Assembly: GCA_030427905.1 (NCBI GenBank) | Contig: JAUICL010000001.1 | Coordinates: 992,001 to 1,056,000, forward strand | From: Bacteroidia bacterium | Lineage (GTDB): Bacteria; Bacteroidota; Bacteroidia; Flavobacteriales_D; Cryomorphaceae | DNA length: 64,000 nt | Direction of reading: 5' to 3' | In this document: in pieces, positions 37,553 through 59,454 of the stretch | Numbering within the stretch: position 1 is the first letter of the stretch | Layout: each line of letters starts with the position of its first letter | Translations under genes and position numbers: made by a program | The notes under the pieces: generated by a model | The model's database searches: none | Told to the model about the DNA's origin: nothing | The model's input: the letters and a program-made list of their open reading frames with translations, nothing else

Positions 37553-37688
37553 GAAGGTGGAGCCGGAGGAACTAGAACCTATTTTGCCTTATTTGTCATG
37601 AATGCCTTTCTGTTACTGCTGTTATGATCTATATAGAGCTGGTTTTATATTTGAATAGGAGAAATGAGATTAAATAAGGTGAAAAAGA

Positions 37689-37712
37689 TTTGTCCCCTTA
37701 TTTGTCCCCTAG
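37689..37712. repeat. Tandem 12 bp repeat, candidate integrase site
   Basis: Two adjacent copies, TTTGTCCCCTTA and TTTGTCCCCTAG, end 33 bases before the integrase start. A partial copy CTTATTTGTC occurs near 37,590. Such repeats next to an integrase often are arm- or core-binding sites. I could not find the matching copy at a right end. Confidence 0.4.
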
Positions 37713-37745
37713 AATCATTATATTTGAATTGTTAATTCGATGTAA

Positions 37746-38984
37746 ATGCCAGAAGCAAAGTTCATTCTTAAAGAGCCTAATTCAAAAAGTGAAACGCTTG
37801 TGTATCTCTTTTTCAACTTTAACTACCAGCGTTTAAAATATTCTACTGGAGAAAAGGTTCATCCCAAATTTTGGAATGCGAAAAAGCAGCGGGTGAAAGA
37901 GACGAGTCAATTTGTTCAATTCCCTGAGTTTAATCAGCGGCTGAGTAATATTGAGAGCGCCGTGAAGGTGGCTTATTACAAGCTCTTAAACAATAAAGAT
38001 GTTGTTAGTCCTGACATTCTCAAACAACGACTTTTAGAAGAATTAGGAGAAGGTCGCCCTCAGGTGAAATTGGATTTTATACAATGGATGGAAAAGGAGA
38101 TCGAAGGGATGAAAAATGATAAGAAGTATGGCTCGATCCAAGTATATAGAACTCTGTTGAGGCATTTAAAGGAATTTTCTAAAAGCAAGGGATATGTTCT
38201 GAACTTTGACACCATTAACCTAGATTTCTATGAGCAGTTTAAGACCTATATTCTTGTAGAGAAAGGGTTGTTGACAAACACATTTGGGAAGCAAATTAAA
38301 ACCCTTAAGACCTTCTTGAATTTGGCTACAGAAAAAGGTGTTAACTCAAACTTGGCATATAAAAGTCGTTTGTTTAGAGCCACGCTTGAGGATGTTGACC
38401 ACATCTATCTTACGCTCGAAGAGCTAGATTCGCTTCATCAATTGGATCTCACGTATAAGCCATACCTTGATCGGGTAAGAGATCTATTTCTCATAGGATG
38501 CTTTACTGGATTACGGTTTTCTGATTTTACCCAACTGAAAGGTGAAAACCTTGAGAAGGCCGGGCATGGGTATGTTTTTAATGTGAAAACTCAAAAAACT
38601 AATGAGCGCGTTGTTATTCCTGTGAAGCCAATTTTGATGTCGATTTGGGAGAAGTATGACGGGACCTTACCACGCGCGATTTCTAATCAGAAAATGAACA
38701 AGTATTTGAAGGAGCTCGGGAAAGCTGCAGGAATCACCAACAATACAACTTTAAAACGAACTAGTGGTAAGCAAGTTAAGGAAGTGATCCGACCAAAAAA
38801 CGAATTTATCACCACCCATACGGCAAGAAGAAGTTTTGCAACAAATGCTTACCTGGAAGGAGTGCCAGCCATCAGTATAATGAAGTTTACTGGTCATCGA
38901 ACTGAGAGCTCATTTATGAAATATATCAAAGTTTCACAGGAAAGAAATGCATTGCTTCTAATGAATCACGATTTTTTTAAATGA
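37746..38984 (+). CDS. Tyrosine recombinase/integrase
   Basis: 412 residues. An arm-type N-terminus (about 1-100), a SAM-like core-binding domain (about 105-205) and a catalytic domain with R257 (TGLRFSDF), H358-x-x-R361 (HTARRSF), H384 (TGHRTESS) and nucleophile Y393 are all present, so it should be active. It is of the kind found in Bacteroidota conjugative and satellite elements. It would integrate and excise the element by site-specific recombination. Confidence 0.93.
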   Translation: MPEAKFILKEPNSKSETLVYLFFNFNYQRLKYSTGEKVHPKFWNAKKQRVKETSQFVQFPEFNQRLSNIESAVKVAYYKLLNNKDVVSPDILKQRLLEELGEGRPQVKLDFIQWMEKEIEGMKNDKKYGSIQVYRTLLRHLKEFSKSKGYVLNFDTINLDFYEQFKTYILVEKGLLTNTFGKQIKTLKTFLNLATEKGVNSNLAYKSRLFRATLEDVDHIYLTLEELDSLHQLDLTYKPYLDRVRDLFLIGCFTGLRFSDFTQLKGENLEKAGHGYVFNVKTQKTNERVVIPVKPILMSIWEKYDGTLPRAISNQKMNKYLKELGKAAGITNNTTLKRTSGKQVKEVIRPKNEFITTHTARRSFATNAYLEGVPAISIMKFTGHRTESSFMKYIKVSQERNALLLMNHDFFK

Positions 38985-39002
38985 GTTTTAATACTTAGAC
39001 AG

Positions 39003-39629
39003 ATGAACGAAAAAGACAGATTTGATATGACCAATTATTTCACCAATTTTCAAGGAGCGTTATATCAATTTAGGAATGATCTAAAAAATGAAAAGACTGA
39101 ACGAGAAGCATCAGTTGAAGGCAGCTCAAAAAAAGATTACAGGAGTCAGCTGGAAAACGTAAACCTGAGTATTCTAGACGTTGGTCCAGAAATAGAAAAG
39201 TTTAAAGACGAGTTTATTAATGATCTGGAAACCCAAAAAGATGCTGTGGAACAATTAATTCAGCTTATTGATGATTCTAGGGAAATGGTCGATAGCATCA
39301 CTTTGGAACAAAATGAAAAGAGACATGAGTTATTAGATCATTTAGAATCAATTTTACATCATAGGTTCTCAGAAGCGCTTTCGTCCACACCTATATTTAA
39401 GCTTCGCTTAAACGCTGACAAAACCGTTGTATGTTATCTTTTTCAGCAGTTAAAAAATATCACTGTTGATGGAGAGAATAAAGTTCTGTCTCAGACCAAT
39501 AGAGAATTAGCTAAGTTTCTCATACGATACGTTGAAGGTTATGAAAACCTCCAAGTACAGGACTTGACCAACCGATTTTCCAGAAAAGCTCCTAAAAAGA
39601 GAAGAATTGAAGTAAAAGCTGTAGGTTAG
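39003..39629 (+). CDS. Hypothetical coiled-coil protein of the element
   Basis: 208 residues, mostly helical, with a long acidic coiled coil (about 40-110) and a basic C-terminus (KAPKKRRIEVKAVG) that could bind DNA. The last third has LNADKTVVCYLFQQLKNI and TNRELAKFLIRYVEGYENLQ, a pattern seen in helical Bacteroidota mobile-element proteins. It follows the integrase by 18 bases. Function unknown. Confidence 0.6.
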   Translation: MNEKDRFDMTNYFTNFQGALYQFRNDLKNEKTEREASVEGSSKKDYRSQLENVNLSILDVGPEIEKFKDEFINDLETQKDAVEQLIQLIDDSREMVDSITLEQNEKRHELLDHLESILHHRFSEALSSTPIFKLRLNADKTVVCYLFQQLKNITVDGENKVLSQTNRELAKFLIRYVEGYENLQVQDLTNRFSRKAPKKRRIEVKAVG

Positions 39630-39724
39630 TTTTGATCTCATTTGCTGTTTTTATCTTACAGTAAAATCTACACTTCATTTTTTATCAGGCAATTTTTTTC
39701 TGCCTTTGGGTCATCTAAACGCCG

Positions 39725-40072
39725 ATGGCCATGGAAAAAATCATTTTAACACAAGTACCCTTATCTGAATTAGAAGAAAGGCTAGCTATAGTTTTTGAGG
39801 AGAAGCTGAGTAGCTATATCCAAAAACAAGTATTACCCCAAACCGATGCTGAGAATGAATATCTAACAAGGAAAGAGGTTTCCAAGAAGCTTAGAATCTC
39901 ATTACCTACTTTAAACTCACTTACCAAAGAGGGTGTGATAACGGGTTACAGGATAGGAACCAGAGTGCTGTACAAATGGGATGAAGTAGAATCTGTTCTA
40001 AAAGTAATTTCTTCAAATAAGTACAAAAGGAAGGATAGTATTTCTAAGATACGATCATCTCCAATAAAGTAA
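39725..40072 (+). CDS. Helix-turn-helix protein (excisionase/AlpA-like)
   Basis: 115 residues. YLTRKEVSKKLRISLPTLN and LTKEGVITGYRIGTRVLYKW are the MerR/excisionase-type winged helix (HTH_17), preceded by a helix that may dimerise. Such proteins assist excision or control early genes of integrated elements. An in-frame ATG six bases downstream is an alternative start. Confidence 0.8.
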   Translation: MAMEKIILTQVPLSELEERLAIVFEEKLSSYIQKQVLPQTDAENEYLTRKEVSKKLRISLPTLNSLTKEGVITGYRIGTRVLYKWDEVESVLKVISSNKYKRKDSISKIRSSPIK

Positions 40073-40123
40073 CTTTTTCATCAGATCTCTTAATAAGATC
40101 GATATGTCCCCCATTTCTGAGAC

Positions 40124-41083
40124 ATGATAGACTCCATCAAAATATCCAAATACCTCTCTCCTCAAGAAGTAGAATCTATGCTTCATTTACACGAACCAGA
40201 AGAAGAACTGGTCAACAGAAAAACAGGAGAATTACTCTTCAAGTCGAACATTGGAAATAATTTTACTGTTGTTGTACGAGGCTCCTGCTTAAAGGTCTAC
40301 GGTAGCCTTTCCAAATTATATTTTGGGAGCAATACTAAATCCTTATTGTGGTATCAGGTCAAACCTGCAATCCAAAAGCTGGAAGAAGTTGTTGGTGTAA
40401 ATCTCAAGTCGGCTAAAATAACGAGGCTGGATATTGAATCTACATTCTTATTGCCGAATACAGTAAAAAGTTACTTTTCGATTTTAGGAGATAATCGATT
40501 CTTCAAAAGTAGGTTCCAAGATAAAACAACTCTTTATTATAAAAACTATTCCAGGACTCTCTGCTTTTATGATAAGTCCAAAAAATCTCGTGCTGATAAA
40601 GAAGACTTCTTCACCGAATCTGACCATGCCATGCGTGTGGAGTTTCGAATGTTCAGTGCGTATTTGAAATTATTTGCGAAAAAAGTAGATCGGAACGCGA
40701 TGCTCATTCAGGATTTATTTGATCAGGAGATTCAAAGAGATCTGCTCAATCTTTGGCTTCAGCATTACAACGATATCACTAAAACCACTAGTCTTAAGCT
40801 TGATATGACAGAGGTATCTGGCGTGAAGGACTTTAAGGAAGTGTTACAAGCAGCGGGAATTGAAAAATTAGGAGGCGTCAATCAAGTCATCTCAATGATT
40901 GATAGTGCTAGGGCGGACAATCAAGATATGGACCGAAAGCTCGTGAGTAGATTAAAAGGAGTAGTTAGAACCCAAAATAGGAACCCCTTAGTAGCCACTC
41001 CAAGTCAGCAAATTGCTGAACTGACCGCTACCATTGCTATTGCATACATAGCAAATCTTCTTGGCATCCATGAAAGCTACTAA
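40124..41083 (+). CDS. Rolling-circle replication initiator-like protein
   Basis: 319 residues. VYGSLSKLYFGSN, ITRLDIESTFLL, TTLYYKNYSRTLCFYDKSKK and MRVEFRMFSAYLKLF follow the motif order of the phage/plasmid replication protein II/X family (GSLxKxxxG, LxRxDI, KxLxxYDK, LRxExR). Members nick one strand with a tyrosine to start replication. In this element it would allow copying after excision. The assignment is by motif order only. Confidence 0.65.
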   Translation: MIDSIKISKYLSPQEVESMLHLHEPEEELVNRKTGELLFKSNIGNNFTVVVRGSCLKVYGSLSKLYFGSNTKSLLWYQVKPAIQKLEEVVGVNLKSAKITRLDIESTFLLPNTVKSYFSILGDNRFFKSRFQDKTTLYYKNYSRTLCFYDKSKKSRADKEDFFTESDHAMRVEFRMFSAYLKLFAKKVDRNAMLIQDLFDQEIQRDLLNLWLQHYNDITKTTSLKLDMTEVSGVKDFKEVLQAAGIEKLGGVNQVISMIDSARADNQDMDRKLVSRLKGVVRTQNRNPLVATPSQQIAELTATIAIAYIANLLGIHESY

Positions 41084-41435
41084 TGCCGTAGTTCTTACAA
41101 GAACATCACAAGTAGCCAAACTCCTAATTGAAGGCAAAGGCCGCGAACATATAGTTCAATATGGTTCTGAAAATTGGGGTGTTGGTGAGCGTCAAACAGA
41201 CAAATACATCAAAAAAGCTAAAGATATCATAGCTCGAGATGTCGTGAAGAATGTCAAATATGACTATGCAAAAGCCTTGATGAGGTATGAGCACTTATTC
41301 GAGCTGGCCATATCGAGAAATGATTACAGAGCTGCAGTTCTTATCAACAAAGAAATTGCATCTCTACAGGGACTCTATAAAACCAAGGTAGAACATTCGG
41401 GAGAAGTAAAATTCATCTCTGGATTACCAGATTAG
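41070..41435 (+). CDS. Terminase small subunit-like protein
   Basis: 121 residues from ATG 41,070 (a TTG nine bases earlier is possible). An N-terminal HTH-like region with GVGERQTDKYIKKAKDII is followed by helices and the tail GLYKTKVEHSGEVKFI, very like the end of phage TerS proteins. It would recognise the packaging site. It overlaps the Rep gene by 14 bases and precedes TerL by 4. Confidence 0.72.
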   Translation: MKATNAVVLTRTSQVAKLLIEGKGREHIVQYGSENWGVGERQTDKYIKKAKDIIARDVVKNVKYDYAKALMRYEHLFELAISRNDYRAAVLINKEIASLQGLYKTKVEHSGEVKFISGLPD

Positions 41436-41439
41436 ACCT

Positions 41440-42756
41440 ATGGAAGTCAATTTCCGTGAATTTTATACTCCTAAAGCCAAACAGGCGGAAGCTCATGCCT
41501 GTAGGGCCAAATACCTCCTGTTTGGTGGTGCAATGGGGGGAGGTAAGAGCTGGTTCTTATGTGCTGAAGCAATAAAAAATGCCATGATGTTTCCTGGGAA
41601 TCGTTTGGTCATTGTGAGAAAAGAGCTCTCGGTATTGAGAAAGACTATTTTGGTGACATTTCAGTCTATTTGCCCATCTGCTATCATTGCTAATTTTAAC
41701 CAGAGCAGCTTAAAAGTAACTTTTATTAATGGCTCTGTTCTCTACTTCTTGGATGCAAACAAATCCAAAGATCCTTTGTTCAATAAGCTCAAAGGACTTG
41801 AAATAGGATGGTTTGGAATAGATGAAGCAAACGAAGTAGCAATAGAAGCTTACCAGATACTTAAAACGCGTCTCAGGTGGGTTTTGCCCAATGGAGACAC
41901 TCCACGTTACGAAGGTAGGCTTACAAGTAACCCTGAGAACTGTTGGCTGCTTCCAACTTTTATCACTTCGAATAGTGAATCAGAAGCTTATATCCAGTCG
42001 TTGACATCTGATAACTTTGATCAAGAGAGTGAGTATTATCAATCTTTGGAAGAGACTTTCAAGGACAATCCTACACTCAAACAAAAGTACCTCCTTGGAG
42101 ATTGGACGCTTGTGGATAGCATTAATCAATTAATTCCTTCCAAGTCACTAGCATTATGTTCAAATCCAATTGTGAGCGATTATCCGACTTCGCTTGGGAT
42201 CGATCCAAGTAGGTACGGAGATGATAGAACGGCTTTTGTCTTGCTGAAGGAAGGTAATGTTGAGCTTATTGAAACGTACGATAAGACCTCAACGAATCAA
42301 ATAGTCACCAAGACTATTGAATTGATTGAAGAATATAATATTGATCCAGAAAACGTGGGAATTGACGGTGTTGGAATAGGTGCTGGGATAATTGACAGCT
42401 TGAATGGGTCGGACTACCACGTTAAAGAATTAATTGGTGGAGAAAAACCGGTTGAAGTCTACCATGAAGAAGCTTTTAAGCCATTCAACTTAAGGTCCCA
42501 GATGTACTATGAGCTGAGAAAAGACATCCTCGCAAAACAGCTAGGCTCAATCTCCGATCCTTCTCTTGTTTCTGAATTATCCGCTATCCAATATGAGATA
42601 AGCACTGAAAAGACCGTAAAGATTGCTACCAAAGAAATGATCAAGAAGGTCTATGGTAAAAGCCCTGATATTGCTGATGCTCTGTGTTACGCGAATTGGG
42701 TGAAAACTTGGAGGGATGGCTTTCCATATTTCTTACCAATTTCTGGTGGAAGATGA
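41440..42756 (+). CDS. Phage terminase large subunit
   Basis: 438 residues. Walker A FGGAMGGGKSW (residues 28-38), Walker B WFGIDEANE (about 127), a coupling region, and a RNase H-like nuclease with LGIDPSRYGDDRTAFVLL and VGIDGVGIGAGIID, ending in SPDIADALCYANW. All key acidic residues look present, so an active packaging motor is predicted. There are no head or tail genes after it. Confidence 0.92.
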   Translation: MEVNFREFYTPKAKQAEAHACRAKYLLFGGAMGGGKSWFLCAEAIKNAMMFPGNRLVIVRKELSVLRKTILVTFQSICPSAIIANFNQSSLKVTFINGSVLYFLDANKSKDPLFNKLKGLEIGWFGIDEANEVAIEAYQILKTRLRWVLPNGDTPRYEGRLTSNPENCWLLPTFITSNSESEAYIQSLTSDNFDQESEYYQSLEETFKDNPTLKQKYLLGDWTLVDSINQLIPSKSLALCSNPIVSDYPTSLGIDPSRYGDDRTAFVLLKEGNVELIETYDKTSTNQIVTKTIELIEEYNIDPENVGIDGVGIGAGIIDSLNGSDYHVKELIGGEKPVEVYHEEAFKPFNLRSQMYYELRKDILAKQLGSISDPSLVSELSAIQYEISTEKTVKIATKEMIKKVYGKSPDIADALCYANWVKTWRDGFPYFLPISGGR

Positions 42757-42906
42757 AATCGTCAACAAAAAATCAGCTTCAAACAAATCAAGTTCATACT
42801 CAACTATTCACATCGACGAGAAAAAAATGAACCAGCTATAATTCCATTGGAGTATAATCCTGATTCATTTTAAGTGAATTTTCTGCGCCAGTCCACTTCA
42901 AGTCCT

Positions 42907-43317
42907 TTAGACGGTGAAATACGTTTCAAGGAGTGCTGTTCGTCCAGATGAATTAACGGTTGTTTCATTAAAAGGAAAACTATACTTGTATTCTATGTTT
43001 TCTGCTGGTTTATGCTTAAAAATGTATGCAGCTTCAACTCTTTCTCTGCTTATAGGTGAGACATAGCCTGTGGAAAAGCAAAGTTCCTGACCAGTGGTCA
43101 AATGTCCTCTCCAGTTGTACCACTTTTCATGATTTGATATTCGACTTTTAACATCACCCGCCTCACCTATATAGATTAGCTTTTGCAGTGATACGCTGTC
43201 CGAAGATTTGTCATAGGTAGCTGCATATACAAAATACACACCTGAGTGAGCTGGTATACCAGAGATCGCACTCTGCCTCCAATATCCGTCGGTTTTAACT
43301 AAATAACTTTGTTTCAT
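42907..43317 (-). CDS. GIY-YIG nuclease-like protein
   Basis: 136 residues. GVYFVYAATY and LIYIGEAGDVKSRISNHEKW form the GIY-YIG core with the conserved Arg, and RVEAAYIFKHKPAENIEY holds the metal-binding Glu and the typical K-P-x2-N end. It is on the opposite strand to the terminase and divergent from the sigma factor. It may be a homing-type or restriction-like nuclease of the element. Confidence 0.75.
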   Translation of the reverse strand: MKQSYLVKTDGYWRQSAISGIPAHSGVYFVYAATYDKSSDSVSLQKLIYIGEAGDVKSRISNHEKWYNWRGHLTTGQELCFSTGYVSPISRERVEAAYIFKHKPAENIEYKYSFPFNETTVNSSGRTALLETYFTV

Positions 43318-43668
43318 AATTACTATTACTATTTATATTCAAGACTAATTTACTTTGATGATTATATTGGTTTTAAGTAGTTTAGGTGATGTGGTCCACC
43401 TTAAGATTGATGAACGCTTTGATTAATAATCCACCCTATTTCTGAATTTTTTCTACGACCCCTGGAAAAGAGTATATCCAAAATTGTCCTTTTGGTACTT
43501 ATCTGGTCTTTGCCACTAGTTTTGAGACTTTTTACCCGGACCTAGTCTTTTTTTTCTTGATATTACATGGTGTAAGATTTATGTTATTAACTTGTGTTCT
43601 TGAACATACCAAAACCGTTACAAATCATTTTGTAACGGTTTTGAGTATATGTATTGAGATCTTAAGAA
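43318..43668. other. Divergent spacer with a strong inverted repeat
   Basis: This 351-base gap separates two divergent genes. Apart from the inverted repeat at 43,611-43,642 I see no gene and no known RNA. Confidence 0.4.
43611..43642. promoter_or_regulatory. 14 bp perfect inverted repeat, probable operator
   Basis: AAAACCGTTACAAA and TTTGTAACGGTTTT are exact reverse complements around a 4-base spacer. Because both neighbouring genes are transcribed away from it, it is unlikely to be their terminator. It lies 26 bases before the sigma factor start and is a good candidate for a repressor site. Confidence 0.6.
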
Positions 43669-44316
43669 TTGGAACAGATTAAGGAATCGTATTCCGGTTA
43701 TGCAGCCGATGACTTATTAGTTGTCATTTCAATGATTGATGATGAACCTGAAGAAGCGAAGGGCGCTTACATAGAACTGGTTAATCGTTTCAGAAATAAG
43801 CTTGTTGAGTATTGTATGGTCAAATGCAAGGCTAACCATAAAGACGTTAACTACGCGGTTGACATTGTGTGGAATGTCTTCTATCGCATTAAAAACAGCC
43901 CTGATGGCTTTACTATGAGCAAGGCAAATACAGATGATCATGAAGAAGCCGTATTAGCATATTTGAAGGGTATTGCTCGAAGAGAGTTCTATGATTTGTT
44001 TTATCCAAGAAAAAAATCGAAAGTAATAGAGTATGACTTCAAAGTGGATACATCGAAGGAAGGTACAGAACTTTATAATCGTAAAGTGTTGAAGGGAATA
44101 AACGATGAAGTAGTAAAAGTACTTTCAAAGCTGAGCTGGAAGGAGAGAGAAGTGTTTCTGGCCTATCTTGAATTTGCCCCAAATGGTGAGTATTTACCAC
44201 GAGAGATTGGTGACCAATTAAGAGAGTCTCTTCAACTCGCTGGAGAGTCAACTCTGAGGGTTTACAATAAAAGAGCAAAAGAAAAGCTACAAACTTTATT
44301 AAACGCAACGTCATGA
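43669..44316 (+). CDS. ECF-like sigma-70 family factor
   Basis: 215 residues from TTG 43,669; an in-frame stop just upstream excludes an earlier start. Region 2-like sequence (YIELVNRFRNKLVEYCM, NYAVDIVWNVFYRI) and region 4-like sequence (LSWKEREVFLAYLEF, LREIG-type helix, STLRVYNKRAKEKLQTLL) fit a divergent ECF sigma factor. It overlaps the next gene by 4 bases and may be controlled by the protease two genes downstream. Confidence 0.72.
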   Translation: MEQIKESYSGYAADDLLVVISMIDDEPEEAKGAYIELVNRFRNKLVEYCMVKCKANHKDVNYAVDIVWNVFYRIKNSPDGFTMSKANTDDHEEAVLAYLKGIARREFYDLFYPRKKSKVIEYDFKVDTSKEGTELYNRKVLKGINDEVVKVLSKLSWKEREVFLAYLEFAPNGEYLPREIGDQLRESLQLAGESTLRVYNKRAKEKLQTLLNATS

Positions 44317-44648
44317 AGAAATACATAAAGTCTTACGAGGATCTTGTCAATTCTTTACGAGTAACGGGTCATTTATTCCCATTTACGCCCCAAGAGCTTC
44401 AAAATGCGGCTAAGCTATATATTGATATTGACTACACTTTATTGAGCGAAAAGGTTGTGGCCGAAGAAATATGGGAAGCTGATGCTCCGCGAACTAAGAC
44501 TATTGAGTTGCTGGCGATAGATAAACAGGATCTTAAAATTTCATCATCGTGGGCTATTGCGGCAAGGGGGAACCCGAACTTATCTAAAGCCACTTTAGAT
44601 AAAATTCGCAAGAATCAACAAAAAGGTGGGGGTAGTGATCAGTCTTAA
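44313..44648 (+). CDS. Hypothetical small protein between sigma factor and protease
   Basis: 111 residues, soluble. SYEDLVNSLRVTGHLFPFTP and NPNLSKATLDKIRKNQQKG give a helical start and a basic end. I do not recognise it. The ATGA overlap with the sigma factor and 23-base overlap with the protease gene imply co-translation; it may be an antagonist of the sigma factor that the protease removes. That role is inferred. Confidence 0.55.
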   Translation: MKKYIKSYEDLVNSLRVTGHLFPFTPQELQNAAKLYIDIDYTLLSEKVVAEEIWEADAPRTKTIELLAIDKQDLKISSSWAIAARGNPNLSKATLDKIRKNQQKGGGSDQS

Positions 44649-45420
44649 TAGAAAAAAGACTTTAAACCAGTTGGCTGAAGATATCACAGAACTTTTCGCC
44701 TTTGGTGAAGTCACACTTCCGGAAAAAATTGCTGAAGAGAACGGAATCAAATATTACTATGATTGGTATGATGATGATTTTGACGGGCTTCAAATCTATG
44801 ATGGTGGAGAATTTCATACTCACATTAACCTTAATAGAGTTGGAAGCAGAGATTCAAATAGAGCAAGGTTTACGTTTGGACATGAGTTAGGGCACTTCTT
44901 TATAGAAGAACATCATATCGAACTAATGAAAGGGTACCACGCTTCGAAGTATGACCCAAAAGAAACTAACTTGATCGAACTTGAAGCAAATTTCTTTAGT
45001 GCTGCCCTTTTGATGCCAAGTAAAAAGTTCAAAGAGATATGCTTTAAGAAACCATTTTCATTAGATCTAATATCTGAGCTTTCTTCATTCTTTCAAATAA
45101 GCAATCTTGCAGCGATTCTAAGATTTGTAGAAGTGGGAACATTTCCTCTCATGGTGGCTTATTGCAGAGATGGAATACTTGAGTGGGTGATAAGAAGCGA
45201 AGATTTTCCATATAAAGTCTTCAGGGCTAAAATTAAAAGTTCTGTTCCTCCTACTTCTGTTGTCGGCGAATACTTCAGATTAGGAGAAACATCAAAATAT
45301 ACAGCAGTAGAAGAAATAGAGGCGGATGATTGGTTTCAATATGCAGGTTCAACCACAATGTATGAGCAATGCTATTATTCAGAATATGGTTTCGTAATTA
45401 GTTTGATATGGCCAGAGTAA
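44626..45420 (+). CDS. ImmA/IrrE family metallopeptidase
   Basis: 264 residues from GTG 44,626 (or GTG 44,635). RFTFGHELGHFFIEEHH holds the zinc motif H86-E-L-G-H90, and ELEANFFSAALLMP gives the third ligand near E120, both standard for ImmA/IrrE. Such proteases cleave repressors or anti-sigma-like proteins upon stress. Here it is translationally linked to a sigma factor and a small protein. Confidence 0.9.
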   Translation: MGVVISLNRKKTLNQLAEDITELFAFGEVTLPEKIAEENGIKYYYDWYDDDFDGLQIYDGGEFHTHINLNRVGSRDSNRARFTFGHELGHFFIEEHHIELMKGYHASKYDPKETNLIELEANFFSAALLMPSKKFKEICFKKPFSLDLISELSSFFQISNLAAILRFVEVGTFPLMVAYCRDGILEWVIRSEDFPYKVFRAKIKSSVPPTSVVGEYFRLGETSKYTAVEEIEADDWFQYAGSTTMYEQCYYSEYGFVISLIWPE

Positions 45421-45906
45421 ACAAATCATTTATACTTCATCAGGCCATCTCAAAAGGTCTAGTTCAGTCAAGCCTCGTTTTAAAAAAAGTAATTTTTCTA
45501 ATCAATTAAATTCCTATCAGATAATAAATCGTCTCTCATCACTACACCGTCCCAGACAAGTGAGAAAAGATCTCTTCACCTTCACTATTAGAAAGTTAAT
45601 CACGAATATCAATATTCAAAGTGCAAGGCGTGGCTATGAAGAAGATAAACAAGGATCATGTCTTGAGATGTACTGACTGAGACGATTAAATAGTTTCTGT
45701 AACAATTGACCTACACTGGGCTTCAAGAACGGACTGAATCAGCAAAAGACCTTATTAGCCTAGATTCATTACGTCAAACTTGCTAAATGAGTTACTACTA
45801 GAGCTTGATGATTAGGGCTCAGGACTCATTCATGCACGTCTAAAGTTCAAATTCGCGTGTTTTTTGGCTATGCTAAATTTCTTTAATTTTAAATAAAAAG
45901 ATTTCG
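45421..45906. other. 486-base spacer before the ABC/nuclease operon
   Basis: I see no coding sequence, strong inverted repeat or known RNA. The A/T-rich end (TAAATTTC near 45,874) is close to a -7 element and probably holds the operon promoter, but no clear -33 box is visible. Confidence 0.35.
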
Positions 45907-46557
45907 ATGGAAGAAGAACTCAGAAAGTTTCGTGACCGCCTTCGCGTAATAATTATCCTCTATACCTTTTGTGAACTAATGGAAGAAGGAGCAGAAAGTC
46001 ATTACGGAGTATTCCGCACAGAAATAAAAATACAAGCCCTAAACTTCCTTTTGCGTAACCCCGATTTCTTGTCTTTAGAATTGATTGACCTGATGGACAA
46101 TGACCAGTCAATTGATCGGGACGAAATCAGAACCACAATCGAAACAATCTACCAAAACAAAGAGCCAGAATTCCGAGTGGAAGAAATGGAGAAATTCTTT
46201 TACGGAGCTTATGAAAGTGTAGATGACTCAATTGCTTTTCTCATTAGCGTTGGTTTTGTACAATACGACAGCAAAAAGAATACTGAAGGAAATACATACG
46301 ATAGAAAGTACTTCATTACTCAAACCTGTGCTGAGCGGATTGAAAACCATCTGAAAAGTATACCCGCAGTAAAATGGTATTTCGATCGCTGCGAACTAAT
46401 CAAAAAGTACTTCAACCAATTCTCAGGATCACAACTAAAATCGCGTCAATACAGGTATTCCGAATACAGAGATATTTCATATAAAAGCCACATTCAGAAC
46501 ATCAATGACAAGGTAAAGGCAGCATTCAACGAGAGATTTAAAAGACAACTGGTATGA
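45907..46557 (+). CDS. Small winged-helix-like component of an ABC/nuclease operon
   Basis: 216 residues, soluble, helical. SIAFLISVGFVQYDSKKN followed by YFITQTCAERIENHL reads as a winged helix (helix, then a YxIT wing, then helix). In ABC-three-component systems, including Lamassu, a small middle protein of about this size bridges the ATPase and the effector. The ATGA overlap with the ATPase gene supports a fixed stoichiometric complex. Function is inferred; I do not recognise the exact family. Confidence 0.6.
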   Translation: MEEELRKFRDRLRVIIILYTFCELMEEGAESHYGVFRTEIKIQALNFLLRNPDFLSLELIDLMDNDQSIDRDEIRTTIETIYQNKEPEFRVEEMEKFFYGAYESVDDSIAFLISVGFVQYDSKKNTEGNTYDRKYFITQTCAERIENHLKSIPAVKWYFDRCELIKKYFNQFSGSQLKSRQYRYSEYRDISYKSHIQNINDKVKAAFNERFKRQLV

Positions 46558-48707
46558 GCAAGAACGAGATTAACTATAAAAAATTCATCACCCACGTTCA
46601 TAACCACTTTAAGAATGATATTGAACTGGAAAAGGTAAAGGAGCTACTGCACCTAGAAGAAGGATATAATAAAGACAGTCCCGAATCTCTAGGCCGCTAC
46701 CTTGTGCTCAACAGACTTATTTTTTCAGGAGAAAAAAAGGGATCAGAATTCGTTTATGATCAGCCGTTTTACACGGGAATCAATCTTTGGATTGCGGATA
46801 ACTTCAAGGGAAAATCATCCATTTTTAAGATTATCAAATTCGCCTTAACAGGAACAGAAAAATATAAGCCCGACATCAAAAAATGGATAAATGAAATCAT
46901 ACTCGAATTTCAAATAGGCCCCGATGTTTATACCATCTACATAGATAAAAGGGGCCGCGATAAAGGCGCATTGTACACATTTGGAATTGAACAATTCCTT
47001 CAACTCCGCCACAACAAGAAACTTGACACTATTGAGAAAGAAAAAGAATTTGAATTTAGAAGTAAGAAAATGCTCGAAGAGCATATGCAGCAATTCTTCT
47101 TTGAACATTTCGACTTTTACACACTCAAATACACTCAGAAAAGCAGCTCCAAGGAAGATTTTGAGCTAAACACTGCAAACCTCAGCTGGACCACCTATTT
47201 CAAATCCATCTACTTAGAGTCGAGCAACTACGAATACCTCTTTTTTGAAAACGAAAAATTTGGAGCGCAGGGTAGGAAGGTCTTTGAAATGATTCTTGGA
47301 CTGCCGCTTACCTACCCAATCAACATGTTGACTATTCAGTCAGATCAGATTTCGGAAGAAGTTGGCAAGCTCAGACTTAGCGACAAGTCAAGCGTAGAAA
47401 CAAAGAAATCTGAAAAGGACAAAATCAGCAAAGACTATGCAGCCGTAGTTGAAAAACTCCGAAAACTTAGAGAAGGAAGAAATCTCAAATTAGATGATAA
47501 ACCACTGATTGAGGAATACAACAAAATTCAGGATAGAGTCACCGAGAATCGCAAAAAAGGAAGAGCTGCTAACGAAGCCTATCAGGCAGCCAAAGAAAAA
47601 GTTGTCCCAATAGAGTTAGAAGTACGAAACTTACAAACTGATAAACGAAAAGTAGATGCAGAAATAAACCGCCTTCGAAAACATGAACTGAATGTTGAGC
47701 TTTACCAAGAGGCTGGCAGCTTCTTTAGTAATCTCGATATAAAGGTTTGCCCACACTGCGAAACAGCAGTAACAGAAGAAAGGAAAGAAAAAGAATTCCA
47801 TCAACACGAATGCAGTTTATGCGGAGAAACATCCACCGAACAAAAAATCGAGGCTGAAGAACTAAAGGCTAAGATTGAGAAGATCAAGGAAGAACGAGCA
47901 GGTTATGAAGTCAAATCGGAAGAACTTCAAAAGAGCATTGAGAATGAAAAACAAAAAGTCATAGACTTAAAATCACAAATTCCGGGACTCTACAATGATG
48001 TTGTTGCTGTTCCTGGAATTCAAGAGGATCAAAAAAGACTAGAAGAAATTGAAGCGCGCATTGAAGTTATAAACGGAGAACGTAAGAAGCAAAAAAAGCT
48101 ATTTGATCAAGAAGAAGAACTAATTCAGGAACGCGGAATTCTAAAATTCAGGTTGGACAATATTGAAGAAGAGAAAACCTCAGATAATTCAAGACGAATT
48201 GAAGAGTTGAGCCTTGATAAAGCAATCCTGACCTATGCTCTTAGCGAACTTGAAAAGAAGCGGATTCAACTCAACGAGGATACACTAACCAAATTAGAAT
48301 CCTTGATTCTGAATGAAATACGCGCATTCGGTCTTAATAGCGTATCCGAAATTAAGATTAATAACAAATACGAACTTGTATTAACTCAAAACGGAGAACG
48401 CGAAGGCTTTAATGATCTTACAGAGGGTGAAAAGCTGCGCGTGAAGCTAGCTTTCTACCTTAGTCTTATTCAGCTCGACATTGAATACAATTTGGGAAGA
48501 CATCCGCGTTTCCTCATCTTCGATTCACCCGGTAGTGAAGAAATGATTGAAGAACACCTTCGCGGACTATCAGATATTCTGAAAAATGTCAACGAACGCT
48601 TCAAAGATCAACTTCAAATTTTTATCGGCTCTGCACTCCGCGAGTTCTCAGATATAACAGAAGCCGAAAAAGCAGTTATTAAAGCGAAAAACGAGTTTAT
48701 ATTTTGA
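46554..48707 (+). CDS. Rad50/SMC-like coiled-coil ABC ATPase
   Basis: 717 residues. Degenerate Walker A ADNFKGKSSIFKIIKFALTG (81-100), coiled coil (about 275-580) broken by a four-cysteine zinc motif C399-x2-C402...C420-x2-C423, signature LTEGEKLRVKLAFYLSL (622-638), Walker B FLIFDSPG (653-660). The residue after the Walker B Asp657 is Ser658 where a catalytic Glu is usual, so hydrolysis may be slow or altered. The four cysteines suggest a zinc ribbon rather than the one-CxxC-per-chain Rad50 hook. It probably senses DNA and gates the nuclease partner. Confidence 0.85.
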   Translation: MSKNEINYKKFITHVHNHFKNDIELEKVKELLHLEEGYNKDSPESLGRYLVLNRLIFSGEKKGSEFVYDQPFYTGINLWIADNFKGKSSIFKIIKFALTGTEKYKPDIKKWINEIILEFQIGPDVYTIYIDKRGRDKGALYTFGIEQFLQLRHNKKLDTIEKEKEFEFRSKKMLEEHMQQFFFEHFDFYTLKYTQKSSSKEDFELNTANLSWTTYFKSIYLESSNYEYLFFENEKFGAQGRKVFEMILGLPLTYPINMLTIQSDQISEEVGKLRLSDKSSVETKKSEKDKISKDYAAVVEKLRKLREGRNLKLDDKPLIEEYNKIQDRVTENRKKGRAANEAYQAAKEKVVPIELEVRNLQTDKRKVDAEINRLRKHELNVELYQEAGSFFSNLDIKVCPHCETAVTEERKEKEFHQHECSLCGETSTEQKIEAEELKAKIEKIKEERAGYEVKSEELQKSIENEKQKVIDLKSQIPGLYNDVVAVPGIQEDQKRLEEIEARIEVINGERKKQKKLFDQEEELIQERGILKFRLDNIEEEKTSDNSRRIEELSLDKAILTYALSELEKKRIQLNEDTLTKLESLILNEIRAFGLNSVSEIKINNKYELVLTQNGEREGFNDLTEGEKLRVKLAFYLSLIQLDIEYNLGRHPRFLIFDSPGSEEMIEEHLRGLSDILKNVNERFKDQLQIFIGSALREFSDITEAEKAVIKAKNEFIF

Positions 48708-50518
48708 TGACTATTACTCAGACTCATTATGAATTATTTCAAACAGGAACCGACTTTAAGAAGGTTCTTTTCCTTGATAACTTCTACGAGAACTTAGCCG
48801 TTGATCTAGCCAATGAAAGCGACTTGGTAGCACTTCTTAAATTGGCCCTAAAGTCTACTAATGACTACATAAGGCGCACGGCTTTCAAAATTCTTTGCCA
48901 ACTATCGCTCTCAGGTAAAATCTCAAACCCATTCCTGGTATTGAGTGAACTACATACATTACTTCAATCCAATGTGCCGACTCTACAAGCAATTGCGCTC
49001 AAATACTTTCCTTACTTCCAAGGCGCAAGAACCCCTGCGCTAGTTGAACAAATTCAAGAGCTTTCAGACAGTTCCAACGGTGAGGTTGCAAGCCAGGCCT
49101 ACTTCTGCTTAGGAGTTTTACAACTTACAGAGTCCACATCACTTTCAACCCTTCCCGAAGCCATTGTAGCCCTTGAAACGGCCAAGCCTCATTTTAAAGC
49201 AGCAACGCTTTCAATCGAGAATAGAGTAGATGCAGACTTTTACCTTTTAGTAATCGACGTGTTGAATTCAGTCCTAACCGATAGCACAGAATTGGCTGAA
49301 GAGCAGTTTGCAAAAATTAAAACAGCCATAACTGCTCGGAAGCTTTACGAATTTGATGAACATGGTTTAGAGTTGGATTTTCTAGTTTTTCAACTTGTCG
49401 ATCAATTAAGAATCAACTTTTCAATCTCCAGTGCGGCCGAAAGGTGGCTTGAAGTAAAAAATGAAGTTAGCTCCCTCATGCAAACCTATCAGGAGTTGAG
49501 AAAAATAAAAGACCTTTCTACTCCTAGCGAATTTTTAAGAAAAAGACTTTTTTGTAACATATTTGAATTAATTGAAGGAGGCATTTATCAAGCTCACCTA
49601 GCTTCAAATAGGCACCGACTAAAAGCTCTTCAGAAAACCGAATCAGAAACAATACTCGGCAGCTACCTACAACATCTACTTTCCAAGCTACCAGTAGATC
49701 AAGAAATCACACAAAGTAATCCCGAATTACTAGCTCTTTTTTCAGAAATTGAAGGCAGCCAAAAAGGGTTGGCATTGTATCAGTCAATTCCCAATAAAAG
49801 TGTCTCGACAGAGCTGCTTAATAAATTTGGTGAGCTTACGAGAAAATATAAGAACCAACAGCAGCCTTATAAAACAGGATATGTGCTTGGTGAGGAGGTA
49901 TATTACAATCTTCGAAAACAGATTGAGAATTTTCTCCCCGACTACCCAGAAACAAAACTCGAAGCCTATTTTAAGATCGTTGAAGAAGTAATCCGTTACA
50001 CCAGAACAACTTTTGTTGACAGTGACCGAAAACGTTTTGCCTTTCTCTATGCCCAAAGCCCTGATTTCAAAAAGGGAAAAGGGCAAAATGCGCTTGAACA
50101 AGACCTACAAGACAGCATGCTTCGGTTTTTCGAGCACTCAGCTATCAAAGATGGATTAGATCATGAAAAAGCTCGATTTGTTGACGGTGGTCGTGTAGAC
50201 ATAGTATATAAAAAAGACCTCATTACTATCCCCATTGAGCTAAAGAAGTCAAAGCAAAGGCCAACTATTAAAGAGATAGAAGACCAATACATAGCGCAAG
50301 TCCAAAACTACACCGCAGGATATGATCAATTAGGCATTTTTGTGTTGTTAGAACTGAGCAATAAGGCAGTAGAGCCACCACCAAATTTCAAAGACTGGTT
50401 CAAAGTACATCATTTGGAACCATCAAGCAATATGGATATAGAGTATCCTGATTATATAATCTCAGTAGTCATACAGGGCAATCGAACCACCCCCAGTTCT
50501 AAGAGTAAATACTATTAA
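48707..50518 (+). CDS. Helical-repeat protein with C-terminal PD-(D/E)XK nuclease
   Basis: 603 residues from ATG 48,707, which overlaps the ATPase stop by one base (a TTG three bases earlier is less likely). The N-terminal ~150 residues look like HEAT repeats (LVALLKLALKSTNDYIRRTA, VPTLQAIALKYFPYF). The C-terminus has E464, GGRVDIVY with D498, IPIELKKS with E511-x-K513, and Q531 in AQVQNYT, the order of a PD-(D/E)XK nuclease. It is the likely effector that cuts DNA when licensed by the ATPase. Confidence 0.78.
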   Translation: MTITQTHYELFQTGTDFKKVLFLDNFYENLAVDLANESDLVALLKLALKSTNDYIRRTAFKILCQLSLSGKISNPFLVLSELHTLLQSNVPTLQAIALKYFPYFQGARTPALVEQIQELSDSSNGEVASQAYFCLGVLQLTESTSLSTLPEAIVALETAKPHFKAATLSIENRVDADFYLLVIDVLNSVLTDSTELAEEQFAKIKTAITARKLYEFDEHGLELDFLVFQLVDQLRINFSISSAAERWLEVKNEVSSLMQTYQELRKIKDLSTPSEFLRKRLFCNIFELIEGGIYQAHLASNRHRLKALQKTESETILGSYLQHLLSKLPVDQEITQSNPELLALFSEIEGSQKGLALYQSIPNKSVSTELLNKFGELTRKYKNQQQPYKTGYVLGEEVYYNLRKQIENFLPDYPETKLEAYFKIVEEVIRYTRTTFVDSDRKRFAFLYAQSPDFKKGKGQNALEQDLQDSMLRFFEHSAIKDGLDHEKARFVDGGRVDIVYKKDLITIPIELKKSKQRPTIKEIEDQYIAQVQNYTAGYDQLGIFVLLELSNKAVEPPPNFKDWFKVHHLEPSSNMDIEYPDYIISVVIQGNRTTPSSKSKYY

Positions 50519-51068
50519 CCAATCTTCTCTTTATGAGAACTAGTGATTGTCATTCTTTTTTGAAGATGAATCGAATATCCTATGTAGCTGCCTTGATGTC
50601 AATAATTTCAAATACATTATCTTCTAGCAGGATTTATGATATCGGCAATATTTGGGTTAAAAGCTCGGCTTATACATTTAGACTTTAAGCTTTCAATTAG
50701 TCTAACAAATCCAAGCAGCTCATCAATAAGAGATCTGGTACCGAAGCTCTTTTGTTCAAATCTCATCAAAATGAGGTGCACAGCTAACTCAAGCTATTAC
50801 AGGATTGGTATCTTTACATAAAAGTAACTTTTATAGAAAGACTTTAGAAACATAGAAATACGAAGCGTTAGCTTTTAGGTAGGTACCAGAAATCGCCAGT
50901 TTTAAAACACCTCAAACTTAAAAGTAAGACGCTCGCGCCTTGGCGCGGGCTGTTCTTATTTGGGGTGTTGGTGTCTGGCGATACCACTGGTACCGGTAAG
51001 TTACAGTTCCGCGCCTCGTTCTTTTTAGATAAATCACTTCTTGGGGCTGGAGGTACAAAAATAGAATC
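50519..51068. other. Spacer with a long composite hairpin
   Basis: This 550-base gap follows the nuclease gene. Its main content is the folded segment at 50,882-50,994. A 62-residue minus-strand open frame (50,918-51,106) crosses the hairpin and is not credible as a gene. The rest is AT-rich without recognisable features. Confidence 0.4.
50882..50994. ncRNA. Composite ~113-base hairpin, possible structured RNA
   Basis: Nested pairings cover the whole segment: GGTACCA/TGGTACC (outer), ATCGCCAG/CTGGCGAT, AACACCTCAAA/TTTGGGGTGTT and GCTCGCGCC-TT-GGCGCGGGC (tip). The two imperfect stems contain G-T positions that would be G-U wobbles in RNA. It may be a small RNA, a 3'-end structure or a folded recombination site; it matches no family I can name. 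Confidence 0.5.
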
Positions 51069-52283
51069 ATGAAAGTCCTAAAAACTGTACTTAGCGTTAT
51101 ACTCATTTTATCTGGTCTTGGGTGGTTGGCCCAAGGTCAAACCTTACCATCCGTTTTACTCGTTATCTCTGGCTGCATGGTACTTCCAGCTATTTCGAAC
51201 AAATTCAAGGAAAACCCCTTTTGGAAACTGAAGGCGTCAAGGGTGGTTCTTCCTATTGCTTTTTTCTCAGTAGCAATAACTATGATTGAAATACCTGATT
51301 CTACAGATGTTAACAGCACAGAAGCTATAAAGAGATCCGGAGTCGACTTCACTTCTTACCTCAACGCAATGAAGAAAGCACAAGAAAGCTTAGACGTTAA
51401 AAAAATGGAAAGGCGACAAAAGATACTGAAGGATTTAAGAGAAACTAGAGCTTTTATCGCTCTTTCAGATAGTCAAATAGTTAAGGTAGAATTTCTTCCT
51501 ATTTTAACCATCATCAATGACGGACTTACTCGGTTGACCAGCGATCAGTTTGCAATAAATGAAGGCCTAATGCAATCTTTAGGAAGCGCAACCACCTTTA
51601 ATGATGAGAGTGCGTTTGTTGTAAAGACCCTTGCCTTGGCTCTTCCGCAGGAAAATGGAGGATTACCAAATGAAATACTTGAAATATTTGAACGATACCG
51701 TAAGCGTTACAACTTGTATGGAGCTGAAGGATCTACTTTCTATGGCACAGGAAACAAAGAAACTGTATTCTACAATTTCGATATGACAGCGTTTTTCGTA
51801 CTGATGGAAAAAAATAATAAGGATTTCCTAAACGCTTTCTATAAAGCAAGGCAAAATGGGATTTCAAATTGGAAAGAAGGGAGTGACTTTCTCTATCCCT
51901 TCCTTGCATCTCAAGATGCCTTTAATAGCCATTTAGGTGAGGTATATCCAAAGAGTGAGTACTATCGTAATTATGACGAAAGGCTAACTGCTCAAGAATT
52001 ATTTCATGCTTATGAAGGAAATGAAATCAGTGCTGATGATCGGTTCAAGAACAGACGGTTAGCTGTTACAGGAAAAGTAAAGGAAATCAGAGAAACCCTT
52101 GGAGACATCTACATCGATCTTTACTCAGGAGACCCCTCTGGGTGGACAGTTATTAGCTGTCAGATGTCGAATAGAGATGAGGTTACACGCTTGGCTAAAG
52201 GTCAGCGAATCAGGCTCATTGGAAAATGTACTGGAAAGACCTTGAACGTTTCCATCGATCTAATTGAATGCGGGATGTGGTAG
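51069..52283 (+). CDS. Membrane protein with C-terminal OB-fold (tRNA_anti-like)
   Basis: 404 residues. Three N-terminal hydrophobic segments (about 7-20, 25-42, 58-75), then a helical cytoplasmic or periplasmic region, then an OB-fold near the C-terminus: NRRLAVTGKVKEI, YIDLYSG and AKGQRIRLIGKCTG, like the tRNA_anti-like family (PF12869). That domain may bind nucleic acid or oligosaccharide. It stands alone on the plus strand between two conflict-type operons. Function unknown. Confidence 0.6.
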   Translation: MKVLKTVLSVILILSGLGWLAQGQTLPSVLLVISGCMVLPAISNKFKENPFWKLKASRVVLPIAFFSVAITMIEIPDSTDVNSTEAIKRSGVDFTSYLNAMKKAQESLDVKKMERRQKILKDLRETRAFIALSDSQIVKVEFLPILTIINDGLTRLTSDQFAINEGLMQSLGSATTFNDESAFVVKTLALALPQENGGLPNEILEIFERYRKRYNLYGAEGSTFYGTGNKETVFYNFDMTAFFVLMEKNNKDFLNAFYKARQNGISNWKEGSDFLYPFLASQDAFNSHLGEVYPKSEYYRNYDERLTAQELFHAYEGNEISADDRFKNRRLAVTGKVKEIRETLGDIYIDLYSGDPSGWTVISCQMSNRDEVTRLAKGQRIRLIGKCTGKTLNVSIDLIECGMW

Positions 52284-52448
52284 GTAGAATTTGAATATGT
52301 ATAAACTTTTGAATTGGATGATGGTGTTTGACATGAAAGCGCTCAGCCTGACTTTAGTTTTGGTGTGACTAATCCTTCTCAGTGAATTGTTCTAGAGTTC
52401 ATCAAGAAGGCCCAATCTCAAATGATTCAGTATAAAGAACGAATCTGC

Positions 52449-53477
52449 CTATTTTGACAATTCGTTCTTTATGTATGAAGTAATTAAATCTGAGATCACC
52501 TTAGACGGAACCTTTTTCAGAACATTGAGAACATTCAAAGTCACTGTTTTCAATATTCCAAAATCCTTTTTCGGCCTCTTCAGATTATTCTCAAGATAGT
52601 CTATATCTGATATAAGATGTTCCACTTGTGTGGGGTTGAGGTGAGCCCGAATCACTTCCATTTGCGTTTTGATATCTCGTATCAATGTTTCAAGAAGATT
52701 AATGTGCTCTGAATCTGTCCTTATTTTTTGAGTTGAGTTGAAAGCATTATTCTGAAATTGAAGAATTGAATTATCTCCAACACTTACACTAATAGGATTG
52801 GAAGGCTGAATATCAAATTCACATTCTCTTAAATAATTTACCCCCTTCTGCGTCATGAGCAGCATTTTCAAACCAAGACTGGAAGATACCAATCCTTCAC
52901 TAACGCATTCCACCATTATGCGTTTGGTTGTGTCTTCGTCAAAATCGATTGATCTACCAAACTCAATTGGATTAATGCTTACCGATAAAGGATTAGAAGG
53001 CGATGTTTCAACTGCCAGTTTGTAAGCTCTTTTGAGGAACTCATTTTTCTGTTGTAGTTGTTCTAATAGGTTCATTTTGTCTTTTATTTGTATCCAATTC
53101 TCAATTAGTTCGATGTACTCTAAGCGTTTAGTCTTTCGTACTTTTGGAAGAATCACATACTTAATATGCTTAACAAAGAGTTCATGATCACCTTTTTTGA
53201 CTAAACTAAAGTAATCTGAGTGATGGGTTAAAAAGTCATTCACCCGATATGGAGGTTCCATGCGCATAAGGACCTTAAAAAACTCTTCATCGTAATCCTT
53301 CAATGTTGTGGGGCTCGAGAGAGACTCTCCCCCTTCTATTCGACCATCTTCATACGCAAACGCTGCACTGAATCCACGCCAAATGCTATTTCCTAAGTCT
53401 TTTAAGTCAAATTCATGCTTCTTGATTCGATCAGAGCATATAGAATAAAATCTGTTAACTTGATTAATATCACTCAT
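52449..53477 (-). CDS. Hypothetical protein of the Schlafen operon
   Basis: 342 residues, soluble. A helical N-terminus, then FGRSIDFDEDTTKRIMVECV and KMLLMTQKGVNYLRE, which resemble a winged-helix unit, then a linker ISVSVGDNSILQF, then a helical C-terminus. No named family recognised. It is the last gene of the minus-strand group, 87 bases after the Schlafen-like gene, so it probably shares its transcript. Confidence 0.55.
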   Translation of the reverse strand: MSDINQVNRFYSICSDRIKKHEFDLKDLGNSIWRGFSAAFAYEDGRIEGGESLSSPTTLKDYDEEFFKVLMRMEPPYRVNDFLTHHSDYFSLVKKGDHELFVKHIKYVILPKVRKTKRLEYIELIENWIQIKDKMNLLEQLQQKNEFLKRAYKLAVETSPSNPLSVSINPIEFGRSIDFDEDTTKRIMVECVSEGLVSSSLGLKMLLMTQKGVNYLRECEFDIQPSNPISVSVGDNSILQFQNNAFNSTQKIRTDSEHINLLETLIRDIKTQMEVIRAHLNPTQVEHLISDIDYLENNLKRPKKDFGILKTVTLNVLNVLKKVPSKVISDLITSYIKNELSK

Positions 53478-53564
53478 GAGTAGTAAATCCTAAGTTCATG
53501 CCCACTCAATATAGTATCTGGTTAAGCTCATTTCATTTTAGCTACTTTCAAGAAATCTGAACAT

Positions 53565-54599: not shown

Positions 54600-54737
54600 C
54601 GCCAACTAACAATTGATGGGCTTACAAGTTACCAAATCTCAAAAGTATACAGTGCTCAGTGCAAAATAATTAAGATTCTGAAGAGGAAGTTTTTAGTTTG
54701 CTGTACCAGTAGTGTGTTAGACTTGATCGAGATGATC

Positions 54738-55523
54738 CTAGGATTTACATTTAGCATACAATAAAGAGTCCATCTCGTTGCCAATAAATTTTTCCAGACA
54801 TTGAATAGTCTCTTGTTTCTTATGTGGATTGAAATATGCAGAACCAAATTGGGTGTTCAGTCCAAAATCATAGTGGGCAACCAATGATCCACTTTGTAAA
54901 GTGTTTATGGAGATCGTTTTCAGTCCCACGTACTTAGGAAGATCAAATGAAAGTAACTTTTTGAATTGATTTTCAGATGCATAAGAAGGAAAGGGGTCAA
55001 ATCTTTTGGATTTAGATCTGTTTGATTCGATATCGCTGCTAAACTCATGAATTAGACTCTCGTGATCATTTTCATCAATGACTCTGATGTCGATTTTTTC
55101 ATCTTCATTTGAAGGTTCTGTCATACAAATATGGATAAGTCCAACAATAGGGAATCCGTCTTGAACCAAGCCATTTACTTGTTTGATCCCAAAAGAGTTC
55201 GGTGATTTCGACGGCTTTCTACGAGTGGGTCTGACCACTTTTACTTCAATTGCACAAGCCCTACTGACATAGATTTTCCCTTCACGGACAGGAATGATCA
55301 AGATATCTATGTCTCCAGGTTTACGGTTAGTTTTTAGACCTATTTCAGATCGATCCACTTCGAATCCAAGTAAAAACCCTTCATTCTTATGGTAATCTTC
55401 AATACCGAAAGGGTCACATACTACGTTCGAAAATAGAGCATAGTTAAATTCAAAATCCTTGGTGAAAGAAATACGGCGGGTGATTTCCGACTCGCTGAAA
55501 TACTGATATTTAAAATTTCCCAT
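54738..55523 (-). CDS. PD-(D/E)XK nuclease-like protein
   Basis: 261 residues from ATG 55,523, which overlaps the stop of the previous gene by one base. KPGDIDILIIP (D73) and AIEVKVVRP (E93-x-K95), followed by GIKQVNGLVQDGFPIVGLIH, match the D-(x)n-ExK core and the helix with Gln of PD-(D/E)XK restriction-like enzymes. Probably a DNA-cutting enzyme; the target is unknown. Confidence 0.72.
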   Translation of the reverse strand: MGNFKYQYFSESEITRRISFTKDFEFNYALFSNVVCDPFGIEDYHKNEGFLLGFEVDRSEIGLKTNRKPGDIDILIIPVREGKIYVSRACAIEVKVVRPTRRKPSKSPNSFGIKQVNGLVQDGFPIVGLIHICMTEPSNEDEKIDIRVIDENDHESLIHEFSSDIESNRSKSKRFDPFPSYASENQFKKLLSFDLPKYVGLKTISINTLQSGSLVAHYDFGLNTQFGSAYFNPHKKQETIQCLEKFIGNEMDSLLYAKCKS

Positions 55524-59450: not shown

Positions 59451-59454
59451 AACT

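What the first reader, a model, noticed from the sequence alone, without database searches (positions are those of the whole stretch)
37689..42756. Satellite-like element with Rep and both terminase subunits but no virion genes
Seen: integrase with full catalytic set, HTH protein, rolling-circle-type Rep, TerS and TerL in a compact unidirectional run; next genes are a GIY-YIG protein and regulators. Known: phage satellites (PICIs and relatives) keep integration, replication and packaging-redirecting genes and use helper capsids. A complete TerL beside a rolling-circle Rep is unusual for the satellites I know.
Basis: partly seen in the sequence, partly recalled or inferred. Interest (0 to 1): 0.72.

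Follow-up and report, generated by a model that had tools for sequence, protein, structure and literature searches.

The report
Satellite-like island with own terminase
A 54-kb mobile island in a Bacteroidota chromosome carries a replication starter and a complete phage DNA-packaging enzyme pair but no genes for a virus shell, so it may travel inside shells borrowed from phages while carrying anti-phage defence and toxin-like genes; this has not been shown by experiment.

Summary
The module is real: integrase, helical protein, excisionase-like HTH, rolling-circle Rep, TerS and TerL in one run (37746-42756). The borders are wrong. The element runs from 37557 to about 92001, 28 kb past the window. 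It is bounded by a 13-bp repeat of the tmRNA 3' end and by identical arm-type repeat pairs at both ends; related genomes have an unoccupied tmRNA site. It is 54.4 kb, with no virion gene recognised, and carries a Lamassu defence locus and Tc-toxin-like genes. Rep resembles pT181-family initiators (Z 13.7). TerL keeps its ATPase and nuclease residues and matches Sf6 gp2. Rep relatives occur in 4-9 kb tRNA-bounded elements, mostly in Bacteroidota, with the order int-X-HTH-Rep; TerS follows Rep in four, and in a fifth with a different Rep-position protein. TerL was found only here. Most likely it is a satellite-like element that replicates by rolling circle and packages itself into helper procapsids (about 0.5). 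Rivals: a mobilizable element whose Rep is a relaxase, or an island with captured or relic terminase genes. Induction, packaging and a helper were not testable. New variant of a known kind.

The parts
37557..37569 (+). attL core GTGGAGCCGGAGG, equal to the tmRNA 3' end; the other copy lies at 91989-92001, beyond the window, as the 3' end of the intact tmRNA gene
   Evidence: each copy unique in its stretch even with 1 mismatch
37689..37710 (+). pair of direct repeats TTTGTCCCCT/TTTGTCCCCT, 12 bp apart, likely integrase arm-type sites; a matching pair lies at 91912-91933 near the right end
   Evidence: 0 or 0.01 expected by chance
37746..38984 (+). tyrosine integrase (412 aa)
   Evidence: relatives of 35-43% identity head small tRNA-bounded elements
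39003..39629 (+). helical protein, no confident family; occupies the position just after int that other members also fill with unrelated proteins
39725..40072 (+). HTH_17 protein, excisionase/AlpA-like regulator
   Evidence: HTH_17 3e-6; phrog_66 excisionase and transcriptional regulator 7.7e-6
40124..41083 (+). rolling-circle replication initiator (Rep_trans/G2P type), YxK motif at Y149/K151
   Evidence: AF2 pLDDT 91.5; RepDE 4cwe Z 13.7 over 233 residues
41061..41435 (+). terminase small subunit candidate (ATG at 41070), overlapping the end of rep
   Evidence: homologous to the ORF directly upstream of TerL in a prophage (L041); no TerS family hit; fold search uninformative
41440..42756 (+). 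terminase large subunit, ATPase plus nuclease domains with catalytic residues kept
   Evidence: profile hits Sf6 gp2 (4ife) 1.8e-25
42907..43317 (-). GIY-YIG-like protein (weak)
   Evidence: E 0.0045, below the curated cut-off
44313..45420 (+). small protein plus CapP-like M78 protease; likely regulator pair of the defence locus
   Evidence: PADLOC capP 8.2e-59; the small protein has no family hit
45907..50518 (+). Lamassu-type anti-phage locus: LmuC, LmuB, LmuA
   Evidence: PADLOC 3e-61, 9.8e-161, 9.1e-79
37557..64000 (.). part of the tmRNA-integrated island inside the window; it continues to about 92001 (54.4 kb in all)

Best explanation
A site-specific mobile island at the tmRNA gene whose left-end module works like a phage satellite. 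Int, with the HTH protein as excisionase or activator, excises the circle by recombining the tmRNA-end repeats. Rep nicks the circle and starts rolling-circle replication, giving concatemers. The island's own TerS recognises the island's DNA, and its own TerL docks on procapsids of a helper phage, cuts the concatemer and pumps it in. The helper supplies portal, head, tail and lysis. The Lamassu locus would shield the host from competing phages. Shown by sequence: genes, borders, unoccupied site in relatives, no recognised virion genes, intact catalytic residues, and small relatives with Rep and TerS. Inferred: excision, replication mode, TerS specificity, docking on a helper, and that the whole 54 kb moves as one unit.
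For: att repeat and matching arm pairs at both ends. In G003 and G030, same family, the tmRNA 3' end lies next to orthologues of window genes 27656-28201 and 26710-27651; in G002 it lies next to the orthologue of 36939-37181 with the same flank sequence. No virion-gene hits with PHROGs or with 116 prophage ORFs other than TerS/TerL; no portal found in the host genome. Rep fold. TerL motifs and Sf6 match. TerS after Rep in other elements: L044 8e-12, L028 3e-13, L030 4.5e-16, L046 1e-6; and TerS 2e-13 in L122, whose Rep-position gene is of another type. Several relatives are bounded at 4.4-8.5 kb with arm repeats at both ends. Rep relatives were not found in phage records or viral contigs. The gene order parallels PICMIs, int-iolg-alpA-prim, packaged as rolling-circle concatemers (PMC10803314).
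Against: No helper, induction, excision or packaging data. 54 kb is far larger than known satellites (averages of about 10-18 kb, PMC10803314). TerL has no counterpart in the relatives, and most Rep relatives have no recognisable TerS. The focal TerS call rests on synteny and one weak homology. A decayed third arm pair at 87140 suggests accretion. No inverted repeat marking a replication origin was found near rep.
Confidence: 0.5

Rival explanations
1. An integrative mobilizable element: Rep acts as a MOB_T-like relaxase, the circle moves by conjugation through another element's machinery, and the terminase pair is incidental cargo.
For: Rep is of the RCR-initiator fold, to which MOB_T relaxases such as NicK belong (own knowledge); most small relatives carry int and Rep but no recognisable TerS.
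Against: TerS of at least three PHROG families sits just after Rep, or after the Rep-position gene, in several distant elements, which is hard to explain as cargo by chance. No coupling protein or oriT was identified, though no dedicated search for these was made.
Confidence: 0.22
2. TerS and TerL were captured from, or are left over from, a prophage next to an int-Rep element; they are no longer used for the island.
For: Focal TerL and TerS are related to prophage and phage pairs at 26-36% identity; no other member has TerL; the island is large and composite.
Against: TerS and TerL are intact, 4 bp apart, TerS overlaps rep, and TerL keeps all catalytic residues; no portal, head or tail remnant lies beside them.
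Confidence: 0.18
3. The island is an accretion of two or more tmRNA-site elements; the unit served by int-Rep-TerS-TerL ends near 87.2 kb, or was smaller still. (This can hold together with the satellite-like reading.)
For: A third, partly decayed copy of the arm pair (TTTGTCCCCTGATCCGTCTAG) at 87140; relatives are only 4-9 kb.
Against: No second attachment core between 37569 and 91989; no second integrase gene was noticed in the ORF list.
Confidence: 0.3

Closest known systems
PICMI (phage-inducible chromosomal minimalist islands, Vibrionaceae; PMC10803314)
   Same: int, a gene right after int, AlpA-like HTH, replication gene; no capsid genes; site-specific; packaged as rolling-circle concatemers in helper heads
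   Different: PICMI uses a primase, has no terminase gene, is about 6 kb and sits next to fis; here an RCR Rep, TerS and TerL, 54 kb, at tmRNA
Gram-negative PICI (PMC6092414)
   Same: int, AlpA/MerR-type regulator, replication gene, TerS in some, no structural genes, accessory genes
   Different: PICIs use pri-rep, are 12-15 kb and carry at most TerS; TerL and RCR Rep differ
cfPICI
   Same: satellites with both terminase subunits (own knowledge)
   Different: cfPICIs also encode capsid genes; none recognised here
Small int-HTH-Rep elements in Bacteroidota genomes (L028, L044, L059, L126 and others; no publication found in the held library)
   Same: int, X, HTH, homologous Rep, arm repeats at both ends, TerS in some
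   Different: 4-9 kb, no TerL, little cargo
Mobilizable elements with MOB_T relaxases (ICEBs1 NicK type)
   Same: int plus RCR-fold protein
   Different: terminase genes; no conjugation genes recognised

Membership tests
Gram-negative PICI | integrase, regulator and replication module in conserved order | tested here: inconclusive
   int and HTH_17 present, but the replication gene is an RCR Rep, not pri-rep (PMC6092414)
Gram-negative PICI | no phage structural or lytic genes | tested here: inconclusive
   no structural hits, but an amidase/endolysin-like gene at 61640
Gram-negative PICI | size about 12-15 kb | tested here: not met
   54.4 kb between att sites
Gram-negative PICI | helper-phage-dependent induction and packaging | not testable with these tools
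   needs a culture and phages
cfPICI | own capsid genes beside TerS/TerL | tested here: not met
   no capsid, portal or tail hit in the island
PICMI | int, iolg, alpA and primase next to fis, no terminase | tested here: not met
   tmRNA site, RCR Rep, TerS and TerL present
Prophage or decayed prophage | virion genes or their remnants inside the borders | tested here: not met
   116 prophage ORFs match only at TerS/TerL, apart from one weak hit in the Tc-like region
Mobilizable element (MOB_T) | relaxase activity, oriT, dependence on a conjugative helper | not tested
   fold is compatible; no oriT or coupling-protein search was made
Site-specific integrative element | direct-repeat borders, tyrosine integrase, unoccupied site in relatives | tested here: met
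Rolling-circle initiator (Rep_trans/RepDE type) | fold and catalytic tyrosine motif | tested here: met
   Z 13.7 to 4cwe; Y149-x-K151 invariant in 27 sequences

The most novel reading that the evidence does not exclude
A Bacteroidota lineage of phage satellites built on int-X-HTH-Rep-TerS, 4-9 kb in its basic form, of which this member has gained its own TerL and so needs only procapsids and tails from a helper, letting it package a phage-sized 54-kb island with defence and toxin-like cargo.
Probability: 0.3. Interest if true: 0.82.

Novelty: new variant of a known kind. Interest (0 to 1): 0.6.

Why it matters
Phage satellites are described mainly in Proteobacteria, Firmicutes, cyanobacteria and actinobacteria (PMC11389934 and own knowledge); a Bacteroidota family with a rolling-circle Rep and TerS would widen that map. 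A member with its own TerL but no recognised shell genes raises a direct question: can a satellite's motor work on a stranger's procapsid? It would also offer a route by which large defence and toxin-like islands move between Bacteroidota.

Tried and rejected
Close TerL relatives: none among 299 genomes of the order, nor among 395 each of phylum and class; only prophage-type TerLs at about 30%. TerL in viral contigs and Rep in viral contigs or phage records: nothing. One weak Rep hit in a Parabacteroides plasmid record. MT838901, a 4.8-kb TerL record, has a TerS/TerL arrangement like Bacteroides phage BS-TP3 and no Rep hit. TerS structure: mid confidence, no PDB match. Replication-origin inverted repeat near rep: none found. 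Rfam on the window: no hit, because the tmRNA lies outside it. DUF5681 proteins follow Rep in several relatives; whether they are TerS could not be settled. Charybdis elements (PMC12324425) and the Riemerella 50K island (PMC9745183, a RAP44-like prophage) were read and set aside. No paper on this family was found in the held library.

Full report
What is there. The listed genes exist as stated, with one more: int 37746-38984, a 208-aa helical protein 39003-39629, HTH_17 protein 39725-40072, Rep 40124-41083, TerS candidate 41061-41435 (ATG at 41070, inside the end of rep) and TerL 41440-42756. GC is about 0.38 here against about 0.47 in the left half of the window.

Borders. The host tmRNA lies at C5:1083987-1084390, that is window coordinates 91987-92390, 28 kb beyond the window. 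The 13 bases at its 3' end, GTGGAGCCGGAGG, recur at 37557-37569, 176 bp before int; each copy is unique in its stretch at one mismatch. A pair of repeats, 12 bp apart, stands just inside each end: TTTGTCCCCTTATTTGTCCCCT at 37689 and TTTGTCCCCTGAACCGTCCCCT at 91912, with 0 and 0.01 expected by chance. In same-family genomes G030 and G003 the tmRNA is followed, within 1.7 kb in G030, by orthologues of window genes 27656-28201 and 26710-27651; in G002 the orthologue of 36939-37181 stands right beside the tmRNA with the same flank, GCGAAGGTGGAGCCGGAGG. So 37557-92001, 54.4 kb, is an insertion. The 28-37 kb stretch also varies between genomes and was not resolved.

Content. After TerL come a GIY-YIG-like gene, a sigma-like gene, a CapP-like protease and a Lamassu locus (LmuC 3e-61, LmuB 1e-160, LmuA 9e-79), further genes with few family hits and, mostly beyond the window, Tc-toxin-like TcA and TcB/TcC-like genes. 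An amidase lies at 61640. Neither PHROGs nor 116 ORFs from six phage or prophage loci found any virion gene; the prophage ORFs matched only at TerS and TerL, apart from one weak hit in the Tc-like region. Not every island ORF was scanned against PHROGs: the two giant Tc-like genes were left out.

Rep. PF05144 hit 6e-8. With 27 sequences in the alignment the model has mean pLDDT 91.5; the best solved structures are rolling-circle initiators RepDE (Z 13.7, 3.3 A over 233 residues) and its Geobacillus relative (Z 11.0), well above the next rows at Z 7.3. Y149-x-K151 is invariant.

TerL and TerS. The TerL alignment keeps Walker A (GGAMGGGKSW), the Walker B acidic pair and the nuclease aspartates D255/D262, D309 and D413 (the motif names are from own knowledge). 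The profile hits Sf6 gp2 at 1.8e-25. The nearest phage is about 30% identical: Bacteroides phage BS-TP3. The TerS candidate matches the ORF directly upstream of TerL in a prophage of G366 at 34% over 88 residues, E 4e-7; A6 aligns it with two such ORFs. Those ORFs have no TerS PHROG hit themselves, so the call is by position.

Family. Rep relatives were found in 10 of 395 phylum genomes, the host included, and at 23 loci of the genome collection, some of them the same places. The usual order is int, X, HTH, sometimes another gene, Rep. The gene after Rep is a TerS by PHROG in L044, L028 and L030, and the second gene after Rep in L046. Integrase relatives of 35-43% identity head tRNA-bounded elements of 4.8-8.5 kb, several with paired arm repeats at both ends; one (L122, 5.9 kb) carries TerS at 2e-13 behind a Rep-position protein of another type. 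L126, in the same family as the host, is a 6.9-kb element with int, HTH and Rep. No Rep locus apart from the focal one has TerL.

Reading. The parallel with PICMIs (int, iolg, alpA, primase; concatemers in helper heads) and with PICIs makes a satellite-like cycle the best single account. It is not a PICI, cfPICI or PICMI by their defining features. The relaxase reading remains open because RCR initiators and MOB_T relaxases share a fold (own knowledge). No portal was found in the host genome with phrog_12, so a helper would come from outside or be unrecognised; that search finds portals in only 4 of 14 control genomes.

Noticed in passing
44313-50518: Small protein plus CapP-like protease directly before a three-gene Lamassu locus (LmuC, LmuB, LmuA).
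   Followed up: partly
63659-82937 (beyond 64000 read in L009/L010): Tc-toxin-like TcA gene and TcB/TcC-like Rhs gene, followed by a partial duplicate of the Rhs C-terminal part split over two frames. Named only; not studied further.
   Followed up: no
87140-87160 (L010): Third, partly decayed copy of the right-end arm repeat pair without an attachment core, hinting at an older right end.
   Followed up: partly
52449-56467: Four minus-strand genes, one with a Schlafen AlbA_2 domain, others without family; possible further defence genes.
   Followed up: no
37274-37550: Several copies of a short palindrome-like repeat (GCCCACC...GGTGGGC type) left of attL.
   Followed up: no
L026, L027, L029, L046: Rep elements sit right beside mnmE (trmE), suggesting a recurrent insertion hotspot.
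   Followed up: no
L095 9783-9900: Two copies of a tmRNA-like 3' end next to each other in G009, a possible trace of another tmRNA-site element.
   Followed up: no
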